Shown here in pieces: positions 12,600-50,760 of a stretch of 64,000 nt of DNA; the first letter of the stretch is position 1; each line of letters begins with the position of its first letter. The DNA comes from Periplaneta americana (lineage: Eukaryota; Arthropoda; Insecta; Blattodea; Blattidae): the NCBI RefSeq assembly GCF_040183065.1, contig NC_091122.1:160995955-161059954 (forward strand), given 5' to 3'. The notes beneath the pieces are model-generated. The model ran no database searches. It was not told where the DNA came from and saw only the letters and a program-made list of their open reading frames with translations. A program made the translations under genes and the position numbers.

Positions 12600-12842
12600 A
12601 TGTTTGGCTCAGTCTGTGCTGTGATATTGATAGTGCACTTACTGTCTGCATCTGCATATATGGTTTGCTGTAGAGACACGTGTTTCAAGCAGTGTGAAGG
12701 AAAGACGACCTTTTGTCCTATGGGAGAAGAGTGCAAAAGCATTGCTACTTGTAGTGATTATGAAAACGTCAAATGTATGGGAGAGTGTGTGGATTTGGTA
12801 CGTACTTCTAATTTTCAAATTAGATCTCTCTGTGTTTATTGA
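12600..12842 (+). CDS. Cysteine-rich secreted-type peptide, family copy 1
   Basis: An 80-residue open frame from ATG 12600. I chose this start because it aligns with the start of copy 2. Residues 1-19 form a hydrophobic leader (V-I-L-I-V-H-L-L-S-A-S-A) that looks like a signal peptide with an A-x-A cleavage region. The mature part has cysteines at 23, 24, 28, 32, 39, 45, 51, 59 and 63. It shares C-F-K-Q-C with copy 2 and the spacing C-x3-C-x6-C-x5-C-x5-C with the other copies. The tail after Cys63 (V-D-L-V-R-T) may be read-through; GGTACGTAC at 12798 could also be a splice donor. I do not recognise the family. Small secreted disulfide peptides in insects are often immune effectors, protease inhibitors or venom-like peptides; none of these is shown here. 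Confidence 0.7.
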   Translation: MFGSVCAVILIVHLLSASAYMVCCRDTCFKQCEGKTTFCPMGEECKSIATCSDYENVKCMGECVDLVRTSNFQIRSLCVY

Positions 12843-13674
12843 TTAATTCTTGGTATATTTATTCATTACTATTCTTTTCACAATATCGGTTCATTTCACC
12901 TATTATTTAAATAACATTAATTAAATCCATGTTATAATATACACAGTGTATTAAAAGAACACTCAATTTTTTGAGGGGTGATAGTATTCACAAGAAACAG
13001 TCTAGTAAGTATGTAAATATCTCTCGAGATATGAGTACTTGTTCATCAACACTGTAGGACAGTCATGTCAATTGATTCCCATAGGAGCAAGCGCGCGCTT
13101 TAGAGCTCAGGAGAGCCTGAGCTCTTTACAGCGGAAAAGGAAAGAGACAGACGAAAGAGGTACTATATGCCGCTTGGTCGAGATATATTCAGGGATGGTC
13201 AGTGCTGATTCAATAGATAAAGGGAAGAGAACTTATTAAAACCGTATCCATGTTAATTTTTAGATTTGTCTGAGAAGTGTAAGTGCATTATAAGAATGTA
13301 GGTTTTAATTTTAATGCTCATTTTTCACAAGTTTGTTTTTCTATTCAAAAGAAATATTTTCTCAATTTTTTTCATAGAAAAGTAAATTTTTCAGATATAG
13401 GCCTGTTTATTTAGTAGCCTTACAGGTACTGAAATAATGTTTTCGTAAATATAATGTACCTAAATACGTATTACTGTTGATAGTTTATTGAAAATTTTGA
13501 AAATATTGAGATGGAAAGTGTTTGTAAGGAAATTAATTGACAAAGCAACTATTGTTACATCATAAACAGAAGATATGTGCTCATGTGTTGCAAAAATGTC
13601 TTCTCTAGTGTTAATATTATATTATATAATTCCATTGCCGCTGGAATTTAAATTTAGTTTCTATTTTATTTTAC

Positions 13675-13678
<4 letters not shown>

Positions 13679-13724
<46 letters not shown>
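13679..13724. repeat. ATT microsatellite
   Basis: About 15 uninterrupted ATT units. Confidence 0.95.
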
Positions 13725-13726
<2 letters not shown>

Positions 13727-14226
13727 TATATTTCTCTTATAATAATATTGTATTATATAATTTCTGTAACTGTAATTTTAATTTTATTTCCTATTCTGTT
13801 TTATTTTATATTCCCTTATAGGCCTATTAATATTATATCTGAACTGCGACCGAACACGAGCGCTGCTCATTCGGTCTCAAATTTTGTTAATACTACTGTA
13901 TCTCCTTTTTTATATAGATTGTATTATTTTATTTCTATTTTTCTTGTTTGTTTGTAATTATATTATTTATTCTGTACATTTAAATTTAAATTTAAATAAA
14001 TAAATAAATAAATAAAATATTCTGATGATAGGAAGTTGCGCACCAATATCACCTCAAAAGCATAATGCGATAAGAGATTTGTTATGGAATATTAGTTGCA
14101 CTTAAAACATATACAGCACCTAGGTAACTTTGCTTTGTACTGTAATATTATTTTGATTAGTTTATTGATTACTTTTGTAAGGCTAAAGATACCATCAAAT
14201 TCAATTCCAACTTATGATGTCATACT

Positions 14227-14229
<3 letters not shown>

Positions 14230-14263
<34 letters not shown>
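14230..14263. repeat. CT microsatellite
   Basis: About 16 CT units. Confidence 0.95.
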
Positions 14264-14266
<3 letters not shown>

Positions 14267-15167
14267 GGGGATATAACTTTCTTTATGAATGATGTGTTTC
14301 ATCCATTTAGTACAGTATAGTCGTACTACTATGGAATTTAAGTGAATATTCCTTCTTAACTCTTTATTATGTTAAGATTTAAAACACAACTGGAATATTA
14401 AGAAATTGATGTTAGTACCTTTGGTTTACAGACAATATAGATAATATCAAACAGAAAGAAGCCATATAAAAATAACGACATAAAATTTCAAGTTCCGTTT
14501 GACGTTTGTGCACTACTGTTTTCTTAATCCAACAGGCTGCTTATTCATATACACAACCCTTCCTCTTGCCATACTTAGCGCTTGATGCCCGCGCACGACG
14601 TCAAGGTCAGAAAAATGCGCTTGCTTTGATACCACTGCTGTAGGAGATGTTCAATGTGATTTCTATGAAAAGAAGCATTGACCATGCTTAGGGGTGCTAG
14701 TATTAATTAAAAAGGAAGAAAAGCCTAATAAAATGCGTCCTATAATTAAATTTTGTACGAAACATGGACTTTGAATTTGGTAGTGTAAGAAAAGTGTGTC
14801 TTATAATATTAGCTTTTCACTCGTATCTTATTGAATATATGAGGGGCATAATATCAAAATGGGTCATGTTAGTAAAAGTTAAAATTAAAATAAAGTCTAA
14901 AAACTGTATCTTTTATCACATCATGTTTAGGTTTGTGGTTTCTTTTTCTATCACTTGCTAAGATAGCATTAACCTTATATCGCACTGAAATTTAAATTAT
15001 GTTCTCAAAATGTAGCTTTGAGAGAGGAATTAAATTTAACTTGACCCACTTTGTTACATTCACTTTGACATGACCCATTTTGAATCGTACAACTGGAAAA
15101 TAGACTCTCCACGGCAATGTAATTATGCATTAATTTGTAAAATTTCTGTGGTCTTATTTTTCAAATA

Positions 15168-15330
15168 ATTATGATCATGCCATCTATAATTACAATTGTA
15201 ATATTATCTAAAGAAACAAAAAACACAATTGTTATCTTTTCGTAAAAATCATAATCATCATCTTTAATTACAATTGTAATATTATTTAAAGAAACAGAAA
15301 AGAGAATTGTTACTTTTTCATAAAAATAAT
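15168..15330. repeat. Tandem duplication of about 80 bp
   Basis: Two copies of a unit containing AATTACAATTGTAATATTAT and AAAGAAACA lie within the 3' region of the 14841 element. Confidence 0.8.
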
Positions 15331-15578
15331 GATGATGATCATCAAAATTGATCAATGAAAACTATTATCATCACTATTCATTAATAATAACTTCTAACCA
15401 TTGCAAGTAATTTTTATGATGATTTTCATTACAAGTTAAGATTATTATCAATATCATTATTGATGCTCATTGACACGTCTTCTAACAATCAATACCATAT
15501 TTTAGAAAAAAATAGTGTTACAAGGGAAACTGAAAAAATTGAAATAAAGAATGGTGTGGTAACTGAATAAAACAAGAT

Positions 15579-17356
15579 TTAAAAATGAGTGCAGGAATCA
15601 ACATCCAAACAGAAACATGTATTAAGACCATCAACATCTTCTGGATGTTCAGTGCCGGAATCTGGAGAACATTTCTCACTGATTTGTTTGTAGATTTCCA
15701 AATGTTCATTTTCTTTCCATGAGTGACCAAAATGTTTCTGTAAGAGCCTATCCACATCTCTAACTTTCAAGGGATTGATTTTTACTACTGATGTGGATAA
15801 TGAAGGTCCTGATGACGCCCTACTGAAACTTTTCCCCCGCTTACATAGTCCACTTGATGATGGTTGGTTGCTTTGGAAATGAAAACAAGATTCTGCTTGA
15901 AATTGAATTGTATTTCTTTTTCTAGTGAAAAACATTCCTTTTACTTCAGATATTTTAAATGGAAGTGAATTTGTCGGTTTCACTACATCTCTAGAAAAAC
16001 TCTTCCAGTCATGTATAGGACAGTCACTGCCCGGGTGTAGAACAGTTGCGTGGTTACTGATGATCGTCTTATACTCTTCTGGGTACACAATCACTTCCTC
16101 TTTACGAACAGACTTTTCAATGTTTCCGAATACTCTATCGCAAGGGAGAAAGCTGTGGCCGACAACAGGGAATAAGAGTTCTACAGATTTGACTTGTGGA
16201 GGAGCTTCATGTTGCAACCACCAGCAGACCATGGAAAGCATTATTGAGTTCTTATTTTGAGCTCCATATCCATCGGAGACGGGGCGAATTTGTTCTATTG
16301 ATGTGAGATCAGTGGACTGCAATTTGTGATGAATGACTGGTGCAATTTCTTTGCTTCCTTTGGGTGCTTCATGTCCAAGCGATGTATATGCAGATATATT
16401 GCGTGGTGATAATCTGTAGTCCTGGCGTTGCTCTACAACAGTTTCATTAAACATATAATATTGCCTAGTATAGTAAGTTGCTTTACCTGGAAGACGAGGG
16501 AGTACGAAATTTTGTTGACAGTAAAAAATTAATGTTACCAGATTTGACGAAGTTTCTTTCATTGTTTCATAGAAACTCTTAGCACGCAGCAAATGAACAC
16601 GTTGGGCTGTCATAGCTTTCAGTCGTGCTTCTTGATTTTTTGCACTGTTGTTCCTTATGATTTCTTTATTTTGGAGGCAGGTTGAACAAACATCAGTTTT
16701 TGGAACACCAAAAGAAAGGTTAAATTGCTTTGTGAATATGGAGTGGAAGAATCCAAGCTTTACTGTCTGTACATTTTCTGTAGGTGCGAAATTTTTGTTG
16801 TAGAGATTCCAACATCTTCTAATAGACTTCAATTCTATGGGTAGGTACAATTTTTTTGAACTTTGACGTGAATAATGTGCTTCTCTGCAAGGTAACCTCT
16901 CAATGAAGACTTTGACAGATTCGCGGCAAAGTCCATATTTAGTTGCCTTCCGATCTCCCCCATATTTTTCTTTCCTGCATGCTCCTGTGTCATGATAAAT
17001 CTTAAGCAAACGGCCCAACCTTCCTCTGTTGACATTGGGGAGAACTGACATAAACAGTGTTTTACACACTTGCACCGTTTTCTTGCTTTTTGTTCTTACA
17101 AAAAATGAGGCAAAGTATGTTTCTTTCTTTCTTTGGTAGCAGTGGACTGTGTGCTAACATGACTTAAGACGAATTCATCCTGTGCTTTATACTCCGAACG
17201 CTTTAAAAATAATTTTCCAAAGAAGGATGCATCCTCTGGAGTTACCTTGTTGCATTCCAATTTTTGCTGCCTGTGACTGCAAGCAGGTGGTATTGTGGCT
17301 GGTTTCCTCAAACTCGAGTATTTATTAAAAAAAATACAATCACTTCTTGAAATCAT
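15579..17356 (-). pseudogene. Probable DDE/RNase H-type transposase, one frameshift
   Basis: The main minus-strand frame (to 15579) reads V-C-K-T-L-F-M-S-V-L, Y-L-P-I-E-L-K-S-I, then V-P-K-T-D-V-C-S-T-C (Cys pair), Y-C-Q-Q-N-F-V-L-P. It continues with S-D-G-Y-G-A-Q-N-K-N and F-P-V-V-G-H-S-F-L-P-C-D-R-V-F-G-N-I-E-K. The D-G-x-G-A-Q-N-K-N and G-H-S-F-x-x-x-D-R-x-F motifs recur in a widespread insect and cnidarian protein family (I believe DUF7869-like), suspected to be transposases. The main frame has no ATG at its head; a second frame (17356-17096) supplies the upstream part, so one frameshift near 17100 is likely. An intron there is the alternative. Family assignment is from memory. Confidence 0.6.
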
Positions 17357-17838
17357 CTATTTCTTTGAACATAACTTTCTCAAATTTTAGTACTGTTTGT
17401 TAAAAGTAATATCCGGAAATACCACGTACTATAATACTGCACAGAGAAGCGACTGCACATGAGTATGTTCCTAATAATATTGAAGGGTTTCATAATTTAC
17501 CAGATTTCTGGACACTATAGCAAAACACTGCCCACTGCGCAATTGACAAGACCCATTCTGTTTCACGTACTATCATAATACCTAGTGTCTTAACGTATAA
17601 GATGGCCCATTTCGATCCATGTAAAAGTAAAGATGACATGTTCCATTCTGAATCATTCATAAGCAAAAAGATGACCCATTTTGATCTGTATGCTTGACTT
17701 CACAGCTCTGTACTTCAGTGACGTGACCCATTACGAATCAGAAATTTTAAGGACAGAAAGCAATCAGTTTCTATATAGAAGACACATCACTAACACATTT
17801 AAAAAAATGACTTGACCCATTTTGATACTGAGGCCCTC

Positions 17839-18229
17839 ATATAGTATCATACCGGAAATCCAGTAAACAAAAGGGTAACGAGATGTGCAATCATTATTGA
17901 TCGTTACAGTGAACAATATACAAGAAACAAGCAAAGAGCTCACATTAGAAGAAATATTGCTCTTACAATACCACTTTCAAAGCCCTTGTTTTGTATCAAA
18001 TTTAATTTTAGGACCCATGTTTATTAGATGTTTTTTTTCTTGTTTTGATGAAGACTATTATCTCTCAGAATAATGAATGTATTTTTCTTTAAATGGAAGT
18101 AATCATATTGAGCATCATCTGTGTTGATGAACAAGTACTCATGTCTCTGAAGATATTAATTGTAGGATCACTCATTATTAGATTTTGTTTCCTTCTTTTG
18201 ATGAATACTGTGAAGGTCATTGCGATGTA
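17839..18229. other. Gene-free interval with partly repeated sequence
   Basis: Two diverged tandem copies of a unit containing TTGATGAA(T/G)ACT lie at about 17990-18060 and 18117-18215. The second also matches 12982-13068 inverted. No gene. Confidence 0.4.
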
Positions 18230-18616
18230 TAGTTGTGGCAAAAAAAAACCGGACCGACCCTTGTAGCAGATTTCAGAGTCACAGATTCAAATTTTGCTAG
18301 TCACAAAACACGTCCATCTTGAAAATTAATTGTAACAATGGCGTTTATTGTATTTGTTCGATTCTTCCGTCTTTTATTTCCTTCAGTGCCTCAAACTTAC
18401 AGACGAAAAAACTTTGAGAGTTTTATTTTCATCTGGCATCAATATTACATTTCTATCTCTATTCGGCAAAGATAACTGCGTGTTTTTACATTAAGTAGCA
18501 GTACATACCTCTGGCTTCACTATCCATATTGAAATTACCACAGTTTGACACAATACACAGCACAGGATTCTTTTGTATCAGCTACAAGGGTCGGTCCGGT
18601 TTTTTTGCCACTACTG
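18230..18616. mobile_element. Tc1/mariner-type MITE, 387 bp
   Basis: Near-perfect inverted repeats carry AAACCGGACCGACCCTTGTA at the left and its inverse at the right, with GTGGC near the tips. TA dinucleotides flank both ends, as expected of a Tc1/mariner target duplication. Non-coding. Confidence 0.8.
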
Positions 18617-18693
18617 TACATTGCTTTCAATGTTGTAAGAAAAATAAAGACGGTGTATTGTTTGATTTCTTTCTTTTAAACATACACAGAGAA

Positions 18694-18956
18694 AGCCACC
18701 GGCGTAGCTCTGTCGACTAAGGCGTTTGCCTACCGATCCGGAGTTGCTCTCGGGCGCAGGTTCGATTCCCGCTTGGGCTGATTACCTGGTTGGATTTTTT
18801 CCGAGGTTTTTCCAAATCGTAAGGCAAATGTCAGGCAATCTATGGCGAATCCTCGGCCTCATCTCGCCAAATATCATCTCACTATCACCAATCTCATCGA
18901 TGCTAAATAATCTTGTAGTTGATATAGTGTCGTTAAATAACCATGTAAAAAAATGC
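18694..18956 (+). mobile_element. tRNA-derived SINE, second family
   Basis: Head with an A box (GGCGTAGCTCTGTCGACTAA) and a B box (GGTTCGATTCCC). The body includes GATTACCTGGTTGGATTTTT and ends GTCGTTAAATAACCATGTAA. A perfect 10-bp target duplication ACACAGAGAA flanks it (18684-18693, 18957-18966). Confidence 0.9.
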
Positions 18957-19106
18957 ACACAGAGAATGTGGTAGTAGTATTTTACTTCAACCAACTGGAA
19001 ATAATATTGCTCTCCTTTTCATTTTTATTAAAGTAGGTAACCGGTACGCTTACATTAAAGAAAGTAAATTTCTACACTGTCTTTAAATCAAATTGATGCG
19101 GTATAT

Positions 19107-20131
19107 GGAAAAAGGGCACGTAATCCGATATGGCATTCTGAGAAAATAGTAATATACGTTACAAAAGTGGTATGTTGACGTTTTCATGGTCAAGGAAAAG
19201 ATTGAAAAGCGAAACGTAGTTGAGCTTTCTTAATTTCCGAGAACATGAAAATAAACATACCGCTCGTGTATCGTACATTATTTTGTGCGAAGATCGTTTA
19301 TTACATACCTGAAAGACGAATTTCTAATTAGTTGCAATGAAATCTCCATGTTGGTTTCTGTTTAATGACGGCAACTTCGGAAAACCAAAATATCTTTCTT
19401 CAACATTGTTGCTATAAAATGTTTTCTGTGTTTACTATACTCCAGCAGGCCGTGATATACGTCTGTCTTTTTTTCCCCCAGTCTATAAATGCGAACTTAA
19501 AACAAACGGTAAGGCTATGTAATGATTTATTTTTCATTTTAATATTTTAACAATATTATTTATATAACATATTGCAGTAATAACATCCGCATCTGGAATC
19601 TTGTTGATTTTTTCACGTCTTCCTTAATGTTACTTGTATCAGGAATGCAATAAGTTTCGTGGAGTAGTAGACTTTACTTAATTTTTGCAAATATTTAAAA
19701 ACAATAATTAACATTGCAATTTAGGTGAAATTGCAGTGGTAAGTTTCCAATTTATAATTATTACTATGTTAAACGTCTCTAAAAATGATATGTTAAAAAC
19801 CTAAAGCAGTGAAATGAATGTCGCGCTTAAGCGGTAGGAAGAGGGAAATTGTTATGTGTGTTACGTTGGGAATACTGAATGTGGTATTTCACACTTACCG
19901 CGTATTGGTTCTGTGCGGAAAACAAGCAAATACGCACGATCTCGCACAAATACTTTTAAAGTTTGCAATCCGTTATATTTATTGTTCTAATGTTTATATC
20001 GTCGTATCTTTTACAAAAAAAGTACTGTTTTATTTATCCTCATCAAAAATATTGCGAATGTTTATAATATTAATATCAGAATGTTATATTGAAAGTAAGT
20101 AAACTACAATGGTGTATGTGCCCTTTTTTCC
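19107..20131. mobile_element. Possible DNA transposon with short inverted ends
   Basis: GGAAAAAGGGCACGTA at the left faces ATGTGCCCTTTTTTCC at the right. No target duplication or transposase is visible; small open frames inside have no domain. Could be coincidental. Confidence 0.35.
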
Positions 20132-21444: not shown

Positions 21445-21534
21445 CATTGTGCCACGTATATGGGTATTACCACAGTCACGAAGCTTGAGTTGTGAGGGTG
21501 CTAGAAACAATAGACTGTGCAGGTACTATTTCGA

Positions 21535-22868
21535 ATTTTTTTTTTTACCTTGGGGGATTAATTGAAGTGAATTTTTATGGCAGGCAGAGTAACTATCTCA
21601 TGCCCCCATGTTTTAAATTGCTTCCAGTGCACTTCATTAGAACCAGGTACCCAGCTTCGAAGCCGTTAGCCCTGTGAACTTACAGTATAATTATTTTCCC
21701 CTATTATCATAATACAGGTTTATTATCTAAGAAATTAGCAAGTTCTTTGTGATAGTAGAAGAGAAAGAGTGGGGGGGAGGGAAGTGGTCCGTGGCCCGTT
21801 TCTTTTAGGGCTCATCCCGACATTTGTCTTATTACTCAAGGGAAACCACGGAGAAACCTTGAGCGGAATGAGGTGTCGTGCTGACGACAAGGCAATTGGC
21901 TACAATGGGGTCATGAATATGTTGTGGTGGGAGGTTGTTATTTAATCATTTGAAGTACTCAAACATTAAAATACATATTAATTAGTTACAAAGAATTCAA
22001 AGCATCTATGCAGCCAATAACGTGATGACCCTGGAACAGAGAAATAACATTATTAGTGCATTAATTGACATGTATGTCTTAGGAGTCAAATGGTTGTTTA
22101 GAGTTCAAGTTGGTATTCGTCTAGTACGTTGTCGTTGCAAGCTAGAGGGTGGAGTACACTCTTAGGTCTTTTATGTTTATCTAATGCAGGATTGTAATTT
22201 CCTAGTGAAGAAATTAGTGGGTTTGTGCTGCTGTACGACTTGGTGTACGTGCAGAAGGCTTGATTTGAAATATATTCTTGAATGGTCGAAATTTCTAGTT
22301 CTTCATGAATCAATCTAACAGGAGTTACTCTAGGAAGTCCTGTGATGAATCTTAAAATTTTGTTTTGGAAAACTTGTAATTTTTTACGGACTGTAATAGG
22401 TGCATGTCCCCAAGCAGGGCAAGCATATAGTATTACTGACCTAATTAATGTTTTATACAAAGTTAGAGCTGTATGTATGTTTAGATGTCTGCTTTTATTT
22501 AATATTGGATAAAGCTCCACCATTCTAGCATTGGCTAGTCTGAGTTTTTGTAGTATATGTTCAGAAAAAGTGAGCCGTCTGTCTAGTGTTACTCCGAGAT
22601 ATTTAACTAGGGTTTTCCACTCGATTTGTGATCCATTTATAGCTAACTTCGAGTGATTTATACCCGGTCTATTGAATTTATTTCTTCTGCTAAATAAGAT
22701 GGCTTGTGTTTTAGATATATTTAATTTGATTCTCCATCTGAGGAGCCATGGTTCAATGTCACGCAGGTGACCTTGTAGCCTGGTAATGGCGACAGTTGGC
22801 TTCCACGATGCCGTGAGAAATGCCGAATCGTTAGCGTATAGTGCTAAAATAGTATTATTGTATGTATA
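21535..22868 (-). mobile_element. Jockey-like LINE, 5'-truncated, inside the P-type MITE
   Basis: Poly-T at 21537-21547 marks the 3' poly(A) end on the minus strand. TCGAATT occurs at both junctions (about 21532 and 22867) as a short target duplication. The 3' region is 21548-22097 and the coding part lies to the right. Confidence 0.7.
22098..22868 (-). pseudogene. Jockey-like reverse transcriptase, C-terminal fragment
   Basis: The frame begins around L-A-L-Y-A-N-D-S-A-F, the Y-A-D-D catalytic box with the first Asp changed to Asn. It continues with V-K-Y-L-G-V-T-L-D and Y-A-C-P-A-W-G-H to the stop at 22098. The LINE is truncated just before the catalytic box, so no active enzyme is possible. 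The apparent Met start at 22916 lies in MITE sequence, giving a chimeric frame. Confidence 0.85.
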
Positions 22869-22976
22869 TCGAATTGTATGTAATAAGGCGATATTAGCGA
22901 TCCTAGTGGTTAACAACTATCTATGGATGCATATTTGCTACGTATTGAGCTTCGTGACTGTATATACTAGACTGTG

Positions 22977-23419: not shown

Positions 23420-23522
23420 GTATTTATTCACACTGCAAATGGGTATATACCCGGTGGCAGTGGTAACTAATTACACTCAATAATGACAATTAATAAAAAC
23501 AATAATAATAAATAATAATGTT

Positions 23523-31112: not shown

Positions 31113-32957
31113 TTTAGATTAGATTAGATTAGATTAGATTAGATTTATTTATTTAACCTGGTAGAGATAAGGCCGTCAGGCCTTCTCTGCCCCTCTACCA
31201 GGGGATTACAACTATAACATGAACAATAAGATTACAAGTAATATTAAATTTACAATTACAATTACAATAAAAATTAAAGTACGACAAGAATACCTGATTA
31301 ATGAAAGCTAGACATTTTATCATAGAAGTTAAGAACAAAGAATATTTTTGTATTTACTAAATTACAAATTAAACCTACAATAACAAAATTCTATAGTGAT
31401 GAAATTACCGGATATTGAGATATTTTGTGGTAGATTAAAATAACTATTTACAAGAAACCATGTCTGAACGAGTCTCAATTACTGACCAAGTGCCTAGTAA
31501 GTTTCCGTTTGAATTGAATTTTATTTCGACAGTCCCTGATGCTAGCAGGTAACGAATTCCAGAGTCTTGGCAGGGCTATTGTGAAAGAGGATGAGTATGA
31601 GGAGGTGCGATGGGATGGTATTGTTAGTATTGTTTCATGGCGAGAGCGTGTGTTCAGATTGTGGTGGGAAGAAAGGTAAGTGAAGCGAGACGACAGGTAC
31701 GAAGGAATAGAAGAGTTCAAGATTTCGAAGAGAAAGAGAAGTGAATGTAAATTTCTTTTCTTATCTAGTTTAAGCCAACCTATTGCTTCCAGGGATGGGG
31801 TAATATGATCATATTTACGAACATTGCTTACAAAACGTACACACAAATTATGAGCACGTTGAAGTTTCATTTTGTTGTCGCTGGAAAGGTCAGTCAGTAA
31901 AATGTCAGCATAGTCAAAATAGGGAAATACAAGGGTCTGCACAAGGGACTTTTTTAAGCAAGAGGGAAGATGAACATTTATCCTTTTTAGCACATGAATA
32001 ATAGAATATACTTTTCTGCAGGTTTCTGTGATTTGCATGTCCCAGTTGAGATTATTATCCATGTGAATGCCAAGATTTTTTACCGAAGAACTGAAAGGGA
32101 TATGCACTGTACTTACTTTAACGGGGGAAATGTCGAGGTGCTTTACAGCGTCGGTTTGCCGTTTGTGTCCTAATATGATTGCTTGTGTCTTTCCAGGATT
32201 GATATTAAGATGGAATTTCTTTGTCCATGTCACAATCGAGTCAATGTCTTTGTTCAATTTATCTATAGCGTCATTTATTCGATCTAAGCGGGAAGAGATG
32301 TAGCATTGAAGGTCGTCAGCATACAAGTGATAGTTACAATGCCTTACATGAGATGTAATATCACTGACATATATTGTGAACAACAATGGTCCGAGTACCG
32401 AACCCTGTGGTATACCTGATGTTATGTTAAGCCAGGAAGAGCTTCGATTCCCGGATACAACACATTGTTGTCTTTCCCGTAAGTAGGATTCGAACCAACT
32501 CACAGCAGTCTCTGACAAATGCAGATTTCTCAATTTATGGGTGAACAGGTCGAAATTTACAGAGTTGAAAGCTTTGCTAAGGTCAAGAAGTGTTAGTATT
32601 GTTACTTTATTAGAGTCGATTGCTTCACGAATGTCTTCTGTCACTTTAAGTAGAGCAGTGCTTGTGTTGTGTCCAGCTCTGAAACCTGACTGATACTTGT
32701 CGAATAGTTTGTGTTCGTTCATGTAGTTAGTAATTTGTCTGTGTACGATTCTTTCCAGTGCTTTTGATATGGCTGGCAGGATACTGATTGGTCTATAGTC
32801 GTTCGGGTCGGTGGGAACTTTGACTTTTGGAAGAGGAAGAACGAAAGCTTGCTTCCATGTTTTAGGGAAAGTTGAAGTGATTAAGGAACTATTGAATATG
32901 TGTGCAATTGTAGGTATGACTATGTCTTGTATTTTCTGTATAAATTTTTCATATGCT
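31113..32957 (-). mobile_element. L2/CR1-like LINE, 5'-truncated
   Basis: The 3' end at the left has a TAATC-type microsatellite tail (31113-31146), then TTTATTTATTTAACCTGGTA. The RT frame is open from about 32955 to 31475. The endonuclease is missing by 5' truncation. A fragment of the same 3' end is at 49935-50003. Confidence 0.85.
31475..32955 (-). CDS. Reverse transcriptase frame of an L2-like LINE
   Basis: An uninterrupted frame of about 490 codons; the longest Met-started part is 415 residues from 32722. Upstream residues P-N-D-Y-R-P-I-S-I-L-P lie in frame. It contains Y-Q-S-G-F-R-A-G-H, L-L-D-L-S-K-A-F (motif A), I-P-Q-G-S-V-L-G-P-L-L-F (motif B), the catalytic Y-A-D-D-L (motif C), and the R-L-W-N-S-L-P-A tail. 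The RT catalytic residues are all present, but the element lacks its 5' part and so has no endonuclease. Probably a recent dead-on-arrival insertion. Confidence 0.85.
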
Positions 32958-38838: not shown

Positions 38839-39080
38839 CATAGGATACATTCGAATACTTCCGTGCACCTTACATTGTGCAATGAGGTACTTTATCAAGT
38901 TTCAGGTTATGTTAATTGTTGTATGAATAATTAATTTTATATTTTAGAGAATATAACGTATCTCAAGTGACTGAAATGCCAGACGGCAAACGAAGCTCTT
39001 CACGTTCGCAAACTCCGAGAGCTCAGGCTTGTTTTCTTCTACGGATCTCAAAGCAGGGGAAGAACAAAACACTACCAGCG
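38839..39080 (+). promoter_or_regulatory. Upstream module and 5' leader of peptide copy 2
   Basis: Three shared blocks are seen: CATAGGATACATTCGAA (38839, 16 of 17 with 49172 before copy 4), ACATTGTG (38872, shared with 9155), and TTTCAGGTTATGTTAATTG (38901, shared with copies 1 and 3). GGTTATG lies 176 bases before the start codon. This copy has no LINE in it and so shows the undisturbed arrangement. Function is inferred from conservation among paralogues. Confidence 0.6.
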
Positions 39081-39317
39081 ATGATTAGGTCAGTGGGTGC
39101 TGTGCTATTGGTGCTACAATTGCTGATATGTGTAAACGAAGTCAAATGCGATTGTGTTTGTCGTGGAGGAGCATGCTTCAAGCAGTGCCAGTCATCTTTT
39201 GCATTTTGCAATGTGCGTAAGATATGTTATTCTGATAGTGATTGTGAGGGAAATGCCAGATGCTGTTCACCTTGCTTTAACCTCCTTATGCTCCACGAAC
39301 TTTCGAAATCAGGCTAG
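39081..39317 (+). CDS. Cysteine-rich secreted-type peptide, family copy 2
   Basis: A 78-residue open frame from ATG 39081, chosen because the hydrophobic leader starts there (S-V-G-A-V-L-L-V-L-Q-L-L). An in-frame ATG at 38976 would add 35 polar residues before the leader, which is unlikely for a secreted protein. Cleavage probably falls near residue 22. The mature part has 11 cysteines, at 23, 25, 27, 32, 36, 43, 49, 55, 61, 62 and 65. The end, C-Y-S-D-S-D-C then C-C-S-P-C, matches the second half of a WAP four-disulfide core (D-x-D-C-x5-C-C). The final WAP cysteine is absent. This is the best-preserved copy. Role unknown; extracellular inhibitor or defence peptide is a guess. Confidence 0.75.
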   Translation: MIRSVGAVLLVLQLLICVNEVKCDCVCRGGACFKQCQSSFAFCNVRKICYSDSDCEGNARCCSPCFNLLMLHELSKSG

Positions 39318-40371: not shown

Positions 40372-40375
40372 TATA

Positions 40376-42938: not shown

Positions 42939-43049
42939 TTTTGAACATTGCATGCGTCATTGAAATAAGTTAATTGAAAGACAAATTCAGCAATGGTTGG
43001 TTTAATATAATGGAATAAATTATAGGAGTTGAAAACAAAGGCCAGAATT

Positions 43050-44319
43050 CAGTGGCGGCTCCTGCATATTTCTTAAGAGGAGGAAAGAAGTTAACAGCGC
43101 AAAATGACACCTTCAGAGAAACATGCTACAAATTAGCCTACATGCATACATGTAAGACCAGTTAGTGTTAGGGTTGGTCTTCCCTTTTGTATAGCAATAA
43201 TCTGTTTTTGTAAACTGAGTTTGCTAAATTGTCCAAAATATAATATGTTTTCACTTCCATTCATTGTTGAATAATTGCACAAATTAACAATTACAAGTAA
43301 ATTCACAACCTCGCAGCATTTTTCGTGCACATAACAGCATCACACGTGTTGGAAGAGACTAGCTACTAACACCTAACCGAAACCGTTTTACGGAAGTGGG
43401 AATGGAAAATAACCTGTTAGGAAAGGGAGAACACTGCACCCACCCACGTGGTCTGTGTTGCCACATGTACATTTTACAAGTTCAGTATCACATGCTTTTT
43501 TAAGAATGTCAGTTCTTGTAAAGTCATACTACTATTATTGTTCAAAGCTGCCGATGGCCAATTAATTTTTTATGTTAAAAATTATGTAGTTTGCAGTACT
43601 TTCAATTTGAAATATATTTGTACAAAACTGACAACTTGGTTGTTGTCCTGTCTAGGGGACAATGAATGTAAGTGAATTTCATAGGCTAAAAAGATCTGCG
43701 ATACTAACTTAGAACTACTTCCTCTTTGTTTTATATAAATCCAACTTCAACTTTCAGATATCCTCGAAAGTTTCAAATCATGAATAGTAGCTTATATAAA
43801 GTGCAATGAATAATATATTTTGATTTATAATTAAAAAAAAGTTTATATGCTGTCTTTCATAGCTTTGCGTTAAAACTGTTTTTATTGTGTCTCCTCCTAG
43901 ATGTGTTATAGTTTGGTTGAATGCAGCATCGTTAAATGGCAGCAGTAGCGAGCTTGCTGCACAACCAGTCGGTTTCTATTTCCCGCCCATGCGCTGATTC
44001 AGAGGAGGATCTCCTCATCCATTCATTTACTTGCTTTACAACTCTGCTTCTTTCTCTGGCCGCTAGCGCGCTGTTGTCTATGTGTGTGTTAACTGCAGTA
44101 GAGGAGGAATGGATTGACTTTCCTCCACACAAACTATCTCGCATCCTTCTCACAGTTTTCTAGCAGCACATGAGTGCGCGTCGTTTAAAACTCGATCAAC
44201 CGAGGTTTTCTTATAGCTGTGAAATTAAAAATTATCGAATTCATTTGGTATTTACTTTCAAAAGAAGAAAAATGTGAGGAGGACGTTCCTCCCTTCCCTC
44301 CTACGAGAAACCGCTACTG
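43050..44319. mobile_element. hAT-type element, 1.27 kb, no transposase
   Basis: The ends CAGTGGCGGCTCCTGC and (inverted) CAGTAGCGGTTTCTCG are hAT-like. A perfect 8-bp duplication CCAGAATT flanks it (43042-43049, 44320-44327). Open frames inside (43932-44163 on both strands) have no known domain. It lies just upstream of peptide copy 3. Confidence 0.85.
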
Positions 44320-44430
44320 CCAGAATTGTAATGTGCTACAATAGTAGCCCAGGCGAGCATTAACGGGGTTATTACAAACGCGAGAATTGTACATTACTGC
44401 AACTGACAGTATGTCATGGCTGCTTTATCA

Positions 44431-44612
44431 TGAAGTTTCTGGTTATGTTAATTGTAGCACAAATATTAACATTTTGTTATCGAAATGTAGCTTCACGTCA
44501 GAGATAAACAGTGAAAAGATAAAAACATTCATGCAAATAGTACAAGGCCAGAGACTTTTTAACTTTTACGAAACTGAAAAAAGAACAATAACAAACGAAG
44601 TTTCTATCAGTT
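44431..44612 (+). promoter_or_regulatory. Upstream module and 5' leader of peptide copy 3
   Basis: TGAAGTTTCTGGTTATGTTA begins at 44431 and matches copy 2 around GGTTATGTTAATTG. The start codon is 172 bases after GGTTATG. The leader ACGAAACTGAAA near 44569 also occurs before copy 4 (50491). Two AGATAA motifs lie at 44502 and 44518. Regulatory role inferred. Confidence 0.5.
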
Positions 44613-44844
44613 ATGATTTGGTCAGTAGTTGCTGCAATATTGGTGCTACATATGCTGAGTTGGTCGAAGCAAGTCACGTGTCCGTGTGTTTGTCATGAAA
44701 ATGAGTGTTTTAAGCACTGTTTTTTTACCGATTCAGTTTTTAAGTATCTATTGTAAAACTGGCTACAATTGCAAATCTAATAGTGATTGTCCAGACAAAA
44801 AGTGTTTGGTCTGTGTTTCGCTCTGTGTAGATATTTACTTTTGA
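44613..44844 (+). pseudogene. Cysteine-rich peptide, family copy 3 (frameshifted)
   Basis: From ATG 44613 the frame has a hydrophobic leader (A-A-I-L-V-L-H-M-L) and cysteines at 23, 25, 27, 32 and 36, exactly the spacing of copy 2, then stops at 44754-44756. From about 44752 a second frame, offset by one base, carries the rest of the pattern: C-x5-C-x5-C-x4-C-x2-C-x3-C, with K-S-N-S-D-C, to a stop at 44842-44844. Between Cys36 and the first cysteine of the second frame there are 31 bases instead of the 18 in the other copies. A net 13-base gain is therefore the likely break. An intron is improbable at this length. I leave the two frames separate. Confidence 0.65.
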
Positions 44845-45210
44845 AATGCGCTAATTCTTATGGAATATTGAAGATGATGACCTACGAGTATGTATATTTT
44901 CGAGCTAGAGATCTGTAGCGATATTAGTGTCAATGAAGAAAATTGTATGTTAACAGAATGTTAAAGAAAACTTGTGTCAATTACCAATAAGCATAGTAGT
45001 AGTAGTATTTATTCCATATTTATAAACCCTATTTTACATATAGTACATTAGGGTTATATTTTAAACTAATCATAACAAATTGAAACTTACAGACTACCAT
45101 ACAATAAATATACACTTGTAAGAGTGTAACATATATAAATTAATACCAATAAGCATAACAGATCCATAACGGAGAACGTTGTACACATTTGTAAATTCGT
45201 AATGATATAT

Positions 45211-45266
<56 letters not shown>

Positions 45267-45757
45267 TCATTTTGTGCGGTAGATTTCTTCATAGTACCAT
45301 TCTCAAGATAATCAATTTGTGGCGTTTGCATTTGGAGTGTCCAAAAGAAGAACATTCTAAGTTACTTTTATTTTTACATTTCATATTTGTAGTCATCTAT
45401 AATATAAACTATCTTTCTATCAAATGACAATGGCAGAAAGCCTGCTTTATAATATATCTAAATTATATGCAAATGAATGAAGTCTTAATAGGCCTATACT
45501 GTTTTATTTTCGCTGGCAGAGGTAAGGCCATAAGACCTTCTCTTCCACTCAACGAGGCTTAATCAATGCAATAGTGATATACATATTTAAATTTGGATAT
45601 TTACATACACTAAAGATTCTCTAGTAATATTCATTCAGTTAAATTTTAACGACTAATACAAGTTTATTTAATTTGAGATAAAGTTTATACGAAAAAGTAA
45701 TAACTTAATTTATGAGCTGATGTATATATGTATATATGTATGTATATATATGTATCC
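44845..45757. other. Gene-free interval with TA microsatellite
   Basis: The 3' part of copy 3 (ATTGAAGATGATGACC near 44867) resembles that of copy 4 (ATTGAAGATAATGACG near 50761). A LINE-like fragment GGCAGAGGTAAGGCCATAAG is near 45515. A TA run is at 45213-45257. Confidence 0.5.
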
Positions 45758-46020
45758 TACTTACTTACAAATGGCTTTTAAGGAACCCGCAGGTTCATTG
45801 CTGCCCTCACATATTCTCGCCATCGGTCCCTATCTTGCTCAACATTAATCCAGTCTCTATCATCATATCCCACCTCCCTCAAATCCATTTTATATCATCC
45901 TCCCATCTACGTCTCGGTCTCCTCAAAGGTCTTTTTCCGTCCGGTCTCCCAACTAACACTCTATATACATTCCTGGGTTCACCCATACGTGTGCTGCCCA
46001 TCTCAAACGTCTGGAATTCA
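45758..46020 (-). mobile_element. RTE-like LINE, 3'-end fragment
   Basis: Starts at ACTTACTTACAAATGGCTTT and matches 9188-9450 of the 9186 LINE over its whole length, with small deletions. Severely 5'-truncated. Confidence 0.9.
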
Positions 46021-46289
46021 GGATATATATGCAATTTGTAAAGAATTATAATTAATTTGAGCTAGCTAGTTGGTTAAATGATGAGAATTAATTTAATAGC
46101 AGTCTACTAGAACTATGTTATAGGGAGTCTTGGCGGTGTTTTAGAGTAAAAATACTCTTCTGAAAAATTGAAGAAAAATGAAATATCTTGTTCTTGTCGG
46201 ACCGTTCATTTGTTATCAATATTTATTGTAGTATATTGAAGACATTGTACGAGTTGTTTTCGTCAATTTTGTCCAAAACGCAGCGAAAT
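46021..46289. other. Interval with no recognised gene
   Basis: No coding signal seen. Confidence 0.35.
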
Positions 46290-46332
46290 TTAGCCTCTTA
46301 TCTTTATCATCGGGCTTGATCTGCTGCATGAT

Positions 46333-46660
46333 TTAAATTTTGTAAGCTCGAAGACGGAGCCTTTTGTGTAGAACATTATGAACAGTGCTGCGAGAAATCT
46401 GGAGTAGCAAACTTGCTTTTGGGATTGATTTTCTTGAGATTCTTGTAAAGGAGGTTCGTACGAGTTCATTGTTCTCTTCATAAAATCTTTTCTTAGCATG
46501 CTTACCACTGCTCGATAACAAGCTTCCTGTTTGCTTCAACTTTTCATCGTAGGCCATTATTCTCGTATAGTCAGGAATAGGATCATGTCTTTGAAGGTTG
46601 TATTCCCGACGAAATCGGCGTTGAATATGCTTCACAGAATTTGTTTCTTCTAACCAAAGA
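46333..46660 (-). pseudogene. IS630/mariner-type transposase, N-terminal helix-turn-helix
   Basis: The frame reads I-Q-R-R-F-R-R-E-Y, T-G-S-L-L, then N-E-L-V-R-T-S-F-T-R-I-S-R-K-S-I and R-S-T-V-H-N-V-L-H-K-R-L-R-L-R-A-Y-K. This is the N-terminal DNA-binding half of a common arthropod transposase. The DDE part is absent downstream; a second frame overlaps at 46290. GGACACGGTGTA near 46854 may be the terminal repeat. Confidence 0.7.
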
Positions 46661-47138
46661 ACGCACGAGATTTCCTGCTAAAGAGTCCACATGGCTAGTT
46701 TTACACAATTAGTTTGCTGTTATTTATTTATTTCTCCATGGCAACCATTGTTACATAAATTGTAAGATCTGCATTACCAAACCTGACTAGATATATTCCT
46801 CTTTGCCATATATATTTGGAGTTATAGCCATTTATTTTATTGCTGTTTTAAGCAGGACACGGTGTATTTGACAGTCGTCAGGTGTGGCTTTATACGTAAC
46901 TTCACATTGTAAAAACTACAAGATGACAACGAACGTGAAAAGTTTCCCACTATACATTGTTGGAAATACAAAGTTCTCATGGCTCCAACGAAATAGCTTC
47001 AGTTCTAGGCACTATCTCATGGAACTGGAAACAAAGTTACGCAGTGAAAACAAGAAAAATGTAGTCACTTCGTCTCTTTCCTGATTCCTGCTTCCCACAA
47101 AATAAAAATTCTACAATGCTGGCCACATTAATGAGCAT
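46661..47138. other. Interval with no recognised gene
   Basis: Possible terminal repeat of the preceding transposase remnant near 46854; nothing else. Confidence 0.35.
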
Positions 47139-47400
47139 AATTGAATGGGTTATTTATGAAAGGGCCTAAGTCATTATTTTGTGAAAATCAGTTTGTAATG
47201 TAATAACTGCTCTTTGGGTATAGATACTTCGATTTAGATATGAAGAGGGCTAAGTTTCACACTCTAATGCTTTGTAGAATTTATGATACAATTTTTATTT
47301 CAGCCTTAATTTCAAAATTTCGGCCTATGAGTAGTTTTTCTTAAGTTACTAACAATGTAGTATTCAAGACTTAGGCCTTTCATAAATAACCCATTCAATT
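47139..47400. mobile_element. MITE with 33-bp inverted ends
   Basis: AATTGAATGGGTTATTTATG at the left and its inverse CATAAATAACCCATTCAATT at the right; the arms continue with AAAGGGCCTAAGTC. Non-coding. Confidence 0.75.
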
Positions 47401-48389
47401 GAGAATTACACTACTTTCAAGAAATATTGCACTATTTTCCCATCAGAGGCCATAGTTATTTACCACCAAATCGTATCTTTGGCAATATCGAGGAGTACAG
47501 GCTCTTAGATACAATCACTGTACCCTCCTAGTACTACAAAATACTGTCGAAATATGGTAAGTGTGTAGTCCTTGGTAAGAATCAGAGGATTTTTTTGACC
47601 TAAGGAGCACATCACAAAGTCTACTGAAGAAAAAGTTGTCATTCAAACTCAACGAAATCCGTCTATTTCGGCTACTTCAAAAATGAAGTATATGCGAAGA
47701 CAAATGCTGGGCCTGCAATGAAGGTGGAAACATTGAAGGTAGGAGTAAGAACTTTAGGAAATATGGATAAAGCTTTGGAAGTTGAAATGAAGAACCAAGT
47801 CAGCCAGAACATAAGTTCTGATACAAACTCCATACTATCTTCATACGCCAGTGTTTATGCTATCTTGCGAAAATAAGTATTATTTTTTGTGATTATTTCC
47901 CCAAAATTTTAGCATAATTATCTAAAATAGGATGTCTTTAAAATATAGTGTAAATAACATAATACTACTTTGAAAAACACTGGTGCAGAGAACTTTGGAA
48001 AAATGTTTATGTTTTTCCATGACTAAAGTGAAAATATTAATTTGAAATTTAATATTTTCAGAAATTTTCAGTTTTAGTGTGTAATGGCAATGTGTTTGTG
48101 TTAAAATGAGTAATATTGTGACAAATAACAGGATAAATGTATTGGATAAATTGTTATAAAACTCTTATTAAGAGAAGCAGGTAAAAGTTTTGTAAAATTT
48201 CAGTAAATGTATTAATATTTTGTAGAAAAATGCAAATTCACAATTTTATTTCAAATGTGTTTACCAATTCCATTCTAAGACTGTAATACAGCTCCACTAT
48301 GCCTGTTGCGTGCTCCGGTGCTTCGAAGTTCAAGCTCCGACTCTAGCACCACAACTGCTTTTGGAGCTTACAACTCTGACACTACTGCT
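47401..48389. other. Interval with no recognised gene
   Basis: A decayed coding-like stretch at about 47600-47830 has no recognisable domain. Confidence 0.4.
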
Positions 48390-48775
48390 GTAATAGGTTA
48401 GATAAGGTCACGGTGGCTAAGGGCGGGTTAGGACGACCCTTTGCACGTCGGTCATACTGAGATCTATTGTGCACTCCGAAGTGTAGGAGATAAATGAGGA
48501 TGAGGGTGTACCAGCCCAACGGTCGCATGTGACCCCTCATCCGCTCACCCAATGGGTGCCTCTACCCTCCCCCGCTCTAAGTTCACACCGGCAAGGTGTG
48601 CAAGCAGCACAGATTCCATTCCAACAGCCCTTCCAAGGTGTCGAAGCGCCCTTGGAGGTGCTCTTAAGGAATGAATCCTGGCAGAGATATCGCGGAAGGC
48701 TGGGAACTCAGGAACGGTTGTAGAGAGCACGACCCCTCCAGTAAGCGGATGAAGACATGCGTCTTGACCTGAATA
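48390..48775. other. GC-rich segment of unknown nature
   Basis: Clearly GC-richer than its surroundings, with open frames on both strands (48529-48730) that I do not recognise. It may be the untranslated region of a LINE or a different repeat. No claim of a gene. Confidence 0.3.
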
Positions 48776-48914
48776 TGGCTATTGGATGAGATGAGAAAGA
48801 TGAATGATATGATAATTATGAAATCTAAATTCTTTTTCTACACGGGAGGAGAAGGGAAAATGGACGGTTGCAATGAAAATTTCAACCCAGCAATTGCCTA
48901 AGTAACTGTGGAAA

Positions 48915-49010
48915 ACCACGGAGAAACCACATTCAGGTTGGTCGGTCCGGGAATCCAACCACGGACCTCTCGAATGCGAGTTCCATGCGATACGCTTGGT
49001 TAAGATTGTA
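48915..49010 (-). mobile_element. tRNA-like SINE head
   Basis: The minus strand has CGCATTCGAGAGGTCCGTGG then TTGGATTCCCGG, like an anticodon-TpsiC region with a B box. AACCACGGAGAAACCA is typical of SINE bodies in this genome. Probably a SINE remnant. Confidence 0.4.
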
Positions 49011-49171
49011 ATATATAATATTTTTTTAAAGATAAAAGTTTGAACACGATATAGGTGTATTTTAAAAGACAACTCTCCTGAAAAAAAAAAAAAAACAGGT
49101 TTTTGTAGATAACGTTTTTTGTGAGAACGCTATTCTTTTGCACAAAGTTTTATAGCCATGGTAGGCCTACT

Positions 49172-49233
49172 CATAGGATAGATTCGAACGCTTTATAATA
49201 CCACAGTGAGTTGTGAGTACTGATGAAGTTTCA
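49172..49233 (+). promoter_or_regulatory. Distal half of copy 4 upstream module, cut off by a LINE
   Basis: CATAGGATAGATTCGAA (49172) matches 38839 before copy 2 at 16 of 17 bases. GATGAAGTTTCA (49222-49233) matches CATGAAGTTTCT before copy 3. The module resumes at GGTTATGTT (50337), after the LINE. Confidence 0.5.
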
Positions 49234-50336
49234 TATTCATATATTCATATTCATAGACTATTCATATTCATATTATTTATTTGCCTGAAGGTACAAGAAT
49301 ACAAGAGGCCTTGTCAATGTGATAATATAAAAAACAATGTGTCAATATTTAAAATATTAAACGAGTAAAAAATAATAAAATTTAACTAAAATTCTACATC
49401 ATTTTCAAAAAATTCATTCATATTATAAAAGGTATTATTTTGTAGCCATCTCTTAATCTGAAATTTAAATTGTGTTTCATTAAGTGCCTTTATGTTTGTA
49501 GGTATCTTATTATATACTTTTATTGCAGTAATTACATAGCTTGTGTTTTTTTTTGCAACCTAACATGTGGTACATTTAATTGATCATTATTTCTTGTTTC
49601 ATAGCGATGCAGATCTACTATACTTGTATAATTAGTAATATTCTTGTTTACATACATTAAAAGTTAAAAAATATATAGATTGTAGGCTGTCATAATCTTT
49701 TCATTTTTGAAAAGAGATCTACATGATAGTCTGGGTGGTGACATTGTTATAATACGAACTGCCTTTTTCTGCAGTAACAGAATGTTTGGAAGGTCAGAAC
49801 TATTTCCATATAAAAGTAATCCATATCTAATAACACTTTCAAATAGTGCATAGTAAACTTGTTTTAAATAATGTTTGGGAATCTTGTACATGACACTTCT
49901 CAAGAGATAAATTACTCTAGAAATTATTATTACTATTTATTTACTATTTATTTATTTAACCTGGTAGAGATAAGGCCGTCAGGCCTTCTCTGCCCCTCTA
50001 CCAATTATTTTACATACATAACTGAAATGGCTATTCCACCTTAGTTTAGGATCCAAATACATACCCAGCATCTTTACAGATTCATTTATCACATTATTTT
50101 GGGTTTGTTTCAAACTTAGTGTTAACACATGAGTTTTGTCATCATTAACAATAAATCCATTAATTGAAAACCACTTTCTTATTTCAGCAAGTACAGCTTG
50201 TTTCATAAAATCTAACTCAGCAGTATTATTATGTGTGATAACAAAAGTTACATCATCAGCATACATTATAGTTTTAGCCGACACATTGTATGGCAAGTCA
50301 TTTATCATAATAAGAAACAAGAATGGACCAAGAATA
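49234..50336 (-). mobile_element. Non-LTR LINE, 5'-truncated, inside copy 4 upstream module
   Basis: The left (3') end has ATTCAT-type repeats (49234-49280). The right end stops in an RT frame directly before GGTTATG. The LINE holds two RT frames on the minus strand. A short insert of the 31113-type LINE end (TTTATTTAACCTGGTAGAGA) lies at 49935-50003. It belongs to a different family from the 9186 LINE. Confidence 0.75.
49664..50330 (-). pseudogene. LINE reverse transcriptase C-terminal half, interrupted
   Basis: From about 50330 the frame reads I-L-G-P then F-L-I-M-I-N-D-L-P, with the catalytic Y-A-D-D-V and L-G-M-Y-L-D-P-K-L-R-W. It is cut at 50003 by a nested LINE-end insert. It resumes at 49903 as Y-A-L-F-E-S-V-I-R-Y-G, L-Q-K-K-A-V-R-I-I and ends near 49664. 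The RT box is intact, but the protein is truncated at both ends. Confidence 0.75.
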
Positions 50337-50531
50337 GGTTATGTTGCTTATTACGTGAACATTAAAATATTATTTCCCAGAAAAGTCCCTACTTTAGAGC
50401 TTATCTGCAATGTTTGAAATTTCCCTGAGATAAAGCAAACTGGTCTCGTTAGTAAAGTGTGCAACTCAGAACTCAGACTTATTAACATTCACGAAACTGA
50501 AAGCAGAAGAACCTGGTAGTTGCTACCAGTT
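50337..50531 (+). promoter_or_regulatory. Proximal upstream module and 5' leader of copy 4
   Basis: GGTTATGTTGCTTATTACGT at 50337 is the start of the module; 195 bases lie before the position of the lost start codon. GAAATTTCCCTGAGATAAAG (50417-50436) holds a kappaB-like half next to a GATA motif, a pairing known from insect immune promoters. GAAAGCAGAAGAACCTGGTA (50498 on) matches the leader of copy 1. Regulation is inferred. Confidence 0.45.
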
Positions 50532-50760
50532 ATATTTCGCTCAGTCGGTACTGCAATATTACTGTTAAAATTTCTGACGTTTATGAAGGAAGTTGAGTGT
50601 GATTGTAAGGAAGATCTGTGTTACGGGCGTTGTTATTCTTACCATGAAATATGTAATACGTGTAAGCATTGCAAATCTGACAGTGATTGTCAAAACGAGG
50701 ACTTTTGGAGTGTTGTGAACCCTGTGTACCATATTATTTAATCCATAGTAAGTCACAGGC
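50532..50760 (+). pseudogene. Cysteine-rich peptide, family copy 4 (start lost, frameshifted)
   Basis: At the position of the start codon (50532) the sequence is ATA instead of ATG, without a length change. The frame then gives a hydrophobic leader (F-R-S-V-G-T-A-I-L-L-L) and cysteines spaced C-x3-C-x6-C-x5-C-x5-C, with K-S-D-S-D-C. After about 50695 the conserved end (two adjacent cysteines, then C) is found only in a different frame, so a one-base loss is likely near T-rich ACTTTTGG. An in-frame ATG at 50583 lies after the leader and could not make a secreted protein. The 3' region resembles that of copy 3. Confidence 0.65.

What the first reader, a model, noticed from the sequence alone, without database searches (positions are those of the whole stretch)
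12600..50760. Four-member family of cysteine-rich secreted-type peptide genes, all in one orientation
Seen: four plus-strand sequences (12600, 39081, 44613, 50532) share a hydrophobic leader beginning M-x-x-S-V (M replaced in copy 4) and the core C-x3-C-x6-C-x5-C-x5-C. In copy 3 the C-x6 interval is disrupted. Copies 2, 3 and 4 also share S-(D/N)-S-D-C. I do not recognise the family. Inference: a rapidly evolving secreted peptide family, possibly defence-related or inhibitory, maintained in a TE-dense cluster.
Basis: partly seen in the sequence, partly recalled or inferred. Interest (0 to 1): 0.9.

Follow-up and report, generated by a model that had tools for sequence, protein, structure and literature searches.

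The report
Cockroach cluster of cysteine-rich peptide genes
The American cockroach genome carries an apparently undescribed cluster of small genes that look like they make secreted, disulphide-knotted peptides; the family is real and some copies are decaying, but what the peptides do is not yet known.

Summary
The window is Periplaneta americana DNA. Its four copies are true paralogues, alike in coding DNA and about 190 bases upstream; the cysteine motif occurs three times exactly and in 0 of 40 shuffles. Copies 1 and 2 are open; 3 and 4 are broken. In 320 kb around the window there are 11 loci, 8 open and 3 broken, six on + and five on -. The two genome-wide searches that were answered found no copy elsewhere (lower bounds). 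Six of 8 open copies fit C-x4-C-x3-C-x5/6-C-x5-C-x5-C-x4..7-C-x2..4-C; 8 of 8 have an even cysteine count, with mature starts chosen by eye. Protein-database, Pfam, PDB and fold searches did not place it. WAP and DUF7107 matches lie below cut-off and are not clearly separated from cysteine-fixed shuffles. Best reading: a lineage-restricted family of secreted disulphide-rich peptides under birth-and-death evolution, probably microbe-facing. Expression and function are untested.

The parts
12600..12842 (+). Copy 1 (c1): open frame of 80 codons plus stop; leader, then 10 cysteines in the mature part
   Evidence: closest paralogue u6 at C6:160972513-160972761
39081..39317 (+). Copy 2 (c2): open frame of 78 codons plus stop; leader, then 10 cysteines
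44613..44756 (+). Copy 3 (c3), first piece: leader to the third core cysteine, then frame ended by a stop
44746..44844 (+). Copy 3, second piece in another frame, holding the remaining cysteines and ending in a stop
   Evidence: profile match E 0.0084 for the frame
50532..50741 (+). Copy 4 (c4), first piece: no ATG (ATA at the start position), open through the S-D-S-D-C motif to a stop
50699..50761 (+). Copy 4, last cysteines in another frame
   Evidence: tblastn match to copy 2 residues 57-77, E 0.076
12404..12599 (+). Conserved 5' flank of copy 1, with GGTTATGTTAAT at 12420-12431
38864..39080 (+). Conserved 5' flank of copy 2, with GGTTATGTTAAT at 38905-38916
44398..44612 (+). Conserved 5' flank of copy 3, with GGTTATGTTAAT at 44441-44452
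50336..50531 (+). Conserved 5' flank of copy 4, with GGTTATGTT at 50337-50345

Best explanation
This is a gene family in one cluster on contig C6 of the Periplaneta americana genome. Each open copy reads as a single frame: a signal-peptide-like leader of about 19-23 residues and a mature peptide of about 46-69 residues, held by an estimated three to five disulphides on an 8-cysteine core. Copies arise by local duplication that, in the + block and in u4/u5, carries about 180-190 bases of upstream DNA along. The mature part then diverges while the cysteine frame is largely kept, and some copies decay: birth-and-death evolution. Most likely the peptides are secreted extracellular effectors that face microbes, as defence or gut/symbiont-control peptides. 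Shown here: paralogy, cluster, cysteine frame, open and broken copies, and, in the DNA pairs compared, a slower leader than mature part. Inferred: secretion, disulphide pairing, transcription, splicing, and any microbial target.
For: Paralogy in coding and 5' flanking DNA, E down to 2e-26. Motif 3 exact against 0 in 40 shuffles. Under neutral divergence of copy 2 to 58% or 64% identity, 0 of 20,000 simulated sequences each kept all six block cysteines and stayed free of stops, as copy 1 does. 11 loci in about 202 kb, 8 open and 3 broken. Searches with c2 (E <= 0.001) and u4 (E <= 1) found only cluster members in a 3.23 Gb genome. Six of 8 open copies keep all eight core cysteines, and 8 of 8 have an even count: 10, 10, 8, 6, 8, 8, 8, 10. 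Leader less diverged than mature part in 7 of 7 DNA pairs compared, of 28 possible. c1/u6 mature part 44/183 differences against 31/278 in flanks. Anatomy like aphid BCR and legume nodule peptides (PMC3574423 passages).
Against: No expression evidence at all. No homologue of known function. Mature net charge runs from -6 to +4, so the peptides are not uniformly cationic. The dN/dS test for the c1/u6 mature part is not significant against 1 (p = 0.18), and none of 6 other pairs shows a significantly faster mature part than flank. By codon counts among the window copies, leader dN is below mature dN in only 4 of 6 pairs; the two exceptions use the short first piece of c3. The mature starts used for cysteine counts were chosen by eye.
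Confidence: 0.45

Rival explanations
1. Protease-inhibitor family: small disulphide-rich peptides that block proteases of gut, cuticle or pathogens, WAP/crustin-like in way of working.
For: Mature copy 2 gives WAP (PF00095) as its only Pfam match at E <= 1: E 0.26, 12 bits. Copy 2 carries C-x5-C-x5-C-C with D at the WAP-typical place (seen in the sequence; the WAP motif is recalled).
Against: Below the 20.8-bit cut-off. None of 10 cysteine-fixed shuffles of copy 2 gave WAP, but 2 of 10 gave other families, one at better E-values (0.048 and 0.12) than WAP has. The eighth WAP cysteine and the usual spacing after C-C are missing (formula in PMC7401287). The adjacent C-C at that place is present in copy 2 only among the open copies.
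Confidence: 0.15
2. Reproductive or chemical-communication peptides (accessory gland, spermatophore, tergal gland), where tandem duplication and fast mature-part divergence are also usual (recalled).
For: Faster mature part in the youngest pair; single-cluster birth-and-death; mixed charge.
Against: Nothing here points to any tissue.
Confidence: 0.18
3. Bacteriocyte peptides that control the obligate endosymbiont Blattabacterium, as BCR peptides are thought to do in aphids.
For: Size, leader, cysteine number, clustering and apparent absence from the protein database resemble aphid BCR genes (PMC3574423 passages). The field says unidentified AMP-like genes cannot be ruled out in Blattella (PMC9369362 passage).
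Against: Expression untested. Sequence similarity to BCR proteins was not tested directly. The cluster (about 202 kb) is far wider than the 20 kb of the aphid one.
Confidence: 0.12
4. Relics: an old gene family now mostly non-functional; the open frames in the window survive by chance.
For: Three of 11 loci are broken and u2 lacks two core cysteines. No protein in the database for the window copies.
Against: 0 of 20,000 neutral simulations at either identity match what copy 1 keeps of copy 2. Six of 8 open copies keep all eight core cysteines.
Confidence: 0.1

Closest known systems
Aphid bacteriocyte-specific cysteine-rich (BCR) proteins (PMC3574423, passages read)
   Same: Small orphan proteins of 67-108 aa with a leader and a diverged part of six or eight cysteines, at near-fixed spacing in four of them; three genes within 20 kb; many not annotated before.
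   Different: Defined by bacteriocyte expression, not testable here. No sequence comparison was made. Here 3 of 8 open copies have ten cysteines and the cluster spans about 202 kb.
WAP four-disulphide core / crustins (PF00095; PMC7401287 passages)
   Same: Copy 2 shares C-x5-C-x5-CC and is hit weakly, E 0.26.
   Different: Below cut-off, last cysteine and spacing missing, and CC at that place absent from the other open copies.
Pfam DUF7107 (PF23416), a domain of unknown function
   Same: Cysteine spacing fits: u3 E 0.002, u5 E 0.76; 3 of 9 mature members at E <= 5.
   Different: Best 18.9 bits against a cut-off of 24.6. 2 of 10 cysteine-fixed shuffles of u3 also hit it, at E 0.038 and 0.088, and other shuffles hit other families at E down to 0.0092, so most of the match may be spacing.
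Cockroach defensins, termicins, drosomycins (PMC7712779 passages; abstract in listing)
   Same: Short secreted cysteine-rich peptides in multi-gene families of Blattodea.
   Different: Six cysteines (defensins) or eight (drosomycins) in other Pfam families; none of these families was listed for any of the 8 open copies.

Membership tests
WAP / crustin | Pfam PF00095 at or above its 20.8-bit cut-off | tested here: not met
   Mature copy 2: 12 bits, E 0.26; no other of the 9 members listed at E <= 5
WAP / crustin | Eight cysteines as CX5-9CX6-31CX5CX5-7CCX3-4CX3-6C (PMC7401287) | tested here: not met
   Copy 2, in the best register I found by eye, has x5 for the second gap, x2 after CC and no last cysteine; the other open copies lack CC there
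WAP / crustin | Antiprotease or antimicrobial activity | not testable with these tools
   needs peptide
DUF7107 | Pfam PF23416 at or above its 24.6-bit cut-off | tested here: not met
   Best 18.9 bits, for u3
DUF7107 | Match beyond cysteine spacing | tested here: inconclusive
   Real mature u3 E 0.0035 against 2 of 10 cysteine-fixed shuffles at 0.038 and 0.088
Insect defensin / termicin / drosomycin | Pfam PF01097, PF11415 or PF00304 match | tested here: not met
   Not listed for any of the 8 open copies (u1, u2 and u6 scanned as mature part only)
EB module | Pfam PF01683 at its 24.3-bit cut-off | tested here: not met
   Mature u1 12.3 bits, E 0.19
Aphid-type BCR peptides | Small leader-bearing proteins with six or eight cysteines, clustered | tested here: inconclusive
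   Size fits (68-92 aa) and all are in one cluster, but 5 of 8 open copies have six or eight cysteines and 3 have ten; definition
Aphid-type BCR peptides | Expression restricted to bacteriocytes | not testable with these tools

The most novel reading that the evidence does not exclude
The cluster is a cockroach counterpart of legume NCR and aphid BCR peptides: a host-made, lineage-restricted, disulphide-rich peptide set that controls the vertically inherited endosymbiont Blattabacterium, evolved independently.
Probability: 0.1. Interest if true: 0.85.

Novelty: new variant of a known kind. Interest (0 to 1): 0.5.

Why it matters
A single-cluster family of at least 11 loci with its own cysteine frame showed no clear relative in the databases searched. 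In Blattella the literature leaves room for unidentified AMP-like genes (PMC9369362 passage). With eight open copies located, RNA-seq and peptide assays can test directly whether cockroaches use undescribed peptides in defence or symbiosis. The c1/u6 pair is a usable case for testing diversifying selection.

Tried and rejected

Genome-wide search with copy 1 and with family PF23416 did not complete.
Full report
What was claimed and what is there. The four sequences exist at the stated places. Copies 1 (c1) and 2 (c2) are open frames of 80 and 78 codons. Copy 3 (c3) stops after the third core cysteine and continues in another frame. Copy 4 (c4) has ATA where the others have ATG, and its last cysteines are in another frame. 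The exact motif C-x3-C-x6-C-x5-C-x5-C occurs three times in six frames of the window, all in this family, and 0 times in 40 dinucleotide shuffles. DNA alignment shows that the homology also covers about 190 bases upstream, e.g. c2 against c3 64% over 332 bases, E 2e-26. GGTTATGTTAAT stands exactly upstream of c1, c2 and c3, and at up to one mismatch nowhere else in the window. The shuffle expectation for that was 0.71 matches, and 2 of 100 shuffles reached three. In the two members outside the window that I checked, the element was not found upstream of u1 or u2 at up to two mismatches.

Source. The best matches of a reverse-transcriptase frame of the window are Periplaneta americana proteins. 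The window is contig C6:160995955-161059954 of a 3.23 Gb genome.

The family is bigger. A genome-wide search with c2 found four places at E <= 0.001, all on C6 within about 200 kb, two of them outside the window. I searched the fetched stretches with a profile of six members, and then 320 kb of C6 with a profile of seven. Names used here: u7 (160844294-160844398, -, broken); u2 (160846477-160846752, -); u3 (160850585-160850839, -); u4 (160861333-160861536, -); u5 (160864807-160865013, -); u1 (160940095-160940322, +); u6 (160972513-160972761, +); and c1 to c4 in the window (+) (u1). That is 11 loci, 8 open and 3 broken, spanning about 202 kb, six + and five -. The 10 kb downstream of the window held no further member; the next stretches were not fetched. 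A genome-wide search with u4 at E <= 1 gave six places, all in the cluster. Copy 1 as a query did not complete, so copies elsewhere related mainly to c1 cannot be excluded, and the tool calls its counts lower bounds. A tree of nine members supports only u3+u4+u5 (96/97) and, less firmly, c1+u6 (91/90); 4 of 6 inner branches are open. Upstream DNA is shared over about 180-200 bases within the + block and between u4 and u5; u3 and u2/u7 share little before the start.

Cysteine frame. The cleanest members (u3, u4) are C-x4-C-x3-C-x6-C-x5-C-x5-C-x4-C-x3-C; u1 differs from this by one residue in one gap, u5 by one residue in each of two gaps. c1 and c2 carry the same core of eight, with somewhat different last gaps, plus two more; u6 keeps seven of the eight and has three others, ten in all; u2 lacks the third and the eighth. 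With mature starts chosen by eye, cysteine counts are even in 8 of 8 open copies. In c2 one extra cysteine lies before the first core cysteine and one beside the seventh, and the two pieces of c3 show comparable extra cysteines. The joint absence of cysteines 3 and 8 in u2 suggests, but does not show, that they pair; u2 may instead be decaying.

Selection. Simulated neutral divergence of c2 to 58% or 64% identity kept all six block cysteines in 4 and 10 of 20,000 runs, stayed free of stops in 169 and 243 of 20,000, and did both in 0 of 20,000; c1 does both. The simulation has no indels and uses one composition. In the window, NG86 gives dN 0.70 / dS 1.83 for the open pair c1/c2, and 0.52 / 0.49 for the broken pair c3/c4 over 34 codons; with such divergence and length these are rough. 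In the same call, leader dN is below mature dN in 4 of 6 pairs; c1/c3 and c2/c3, with 12 and 16 mature codons, go the other way. The youngest pair, c1/u6 (81% over 532 bases), differs at 20/185 (5' flank), 10/57 (leader), 44/183 (mature) and 11/93 (3' flank) sites. First plus second codon positions of the mature part, 36/120, exceed flanks, 31/278 (Fisher p 8e-6), and third positions, 10/60 (p 0.038). NG86 for the mature part is dN 0.33 / dS 0.26; YN00 returned no value there. Maximum-likelihood omega is 2.1 for the mature part (p 0.18 against 1), 0.69 for the leader (p 0.61) and 1.27 overall (p 0.56). A recount with another alignment gave mature against flank p 0.0018 for c1/u6, and no significant excess in any of 6 other pairs (p 0.08-0.74); the leader was less diverged than the mature part in all 7 pairs compared, chosen from 28 possible. 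The flanks may themselves be constrained. So fast evolution is supported in one pair, and positive selection is not proved.

What it is not, as far as tested. No database protein matched c2 or the four-row window alignment, although Periplaneta proteins are in that database; the method needs shared words and similar length. Pfam gave nothing for c1 and c2 with their leaders. Mature c2 gave WAP at E 0.26, below cut-off. Of 10 cysteine-fixed shuffles of c2 none gave WAP, but two gave other families, one of them at E 0.048 and 0.12. u3 gave DUF7107 at E 0.002 with 18.9 bits against a cut-off of 24.6, and its mature part E 0.0035. 2 of 10 cysteine-fixed shuffles of u3 also gave DUF7107, at 0.038 and 0.088, and the best shuffle match to any family was E 0.0092. 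So the shared thing may be cysteine spacing only. NCBIfam gave nothing for c1 and c2, and PDB sequences gave only chance-level matches. The mature c2 model has mean pLDDT 77.6, with strands at 2-5, 8-12 and 18-25, a short helix at 29-32 and a less sure one at 46-53, and no match at E <= 0.001 in PDB or viral models. Foldseek is weak on such small proteins (recalled), so this does not show a new fold.

How it probably works. Leader and cysteines point to secretion and a disulphide-tied scaffold whose loops vary. A family in one cluster, with open and dead copies and, in the DNA pairs compared, more divergence in the mature part than in the leader, is the usual picture of peptides facing changing partners. 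In insects and plants such families include antimicrobial peptides and symbiont-control peptides: aphid BCR (PMC3574423, passages) and nodule peptides mentioned there. Known cockroach AMP families are defensins, termicins, drosomycins and attacins (PMC7712779, passages, abstract in the listing), and none of the open copies matched the defensin, termicin or drosomycin Pfam families. I put microbe-facing roles first (0.45 together with the structural statement), then reproductive or communication peptides, protease inhibition, and bacteriocyte control as a special case. Charge is mixed (-6 to +4), which speaks against a simple cationic AMP.

Literature. None of the listed titles described this family: searches for cockroach cysteine-rich peptides listed 3 of 3, 15 of 16 and 10 of 202 papers; WAP in cockroaches gave 0 papers, EB module 1 unrelated paper and DUF7107 0 papers. 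Only open-licence PMC papers are in that library, and I read passages of six papers, none whole (PMC11050582, PMC7712779, PMC9369362, PMC7401287, PMC12774602, PMC3574423).

Noticed in passing
window 9487-11738 (-): Two long frames of a LINE-type element (endonuclease-like and reverse transcriptase); the second is 94% identical over 87% of the query to a P. americana protein, with 7245 relatives at E <= 0.001 among 7984 scored.
   Followed up: partly
window 31475-32722 (-) and 22098-22916 (-): Further reverse-transcriptase frames (PF00078, E 1.9e-30 and 5.3e-05, the second below cut-off).
   Followed up: no
window 15579-17075 (-): 498-codon open frame with a weak DUF7869 match (E 4.2e-05, below cut-off); possibly a transposon protein.
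   Followed up: no
window 6956-7589: Long simple-repeat stretch that reads as repeated ISYHI in overlapping frames.
   Followed up: no
window 12420, 38905, 44441, 50337: The shared upstream block starts with GGTTATGTT, followed in c1 and c2 by a short ATG frame and GTATGA that the broken copies c3 and c4 have changed; could be a promoter element or an upstream frame.
   Followed up: partly
L017 4294-4398 (-): u7: a truncated family member with a stop at the place of the third cysteine.
   Followed up: partly
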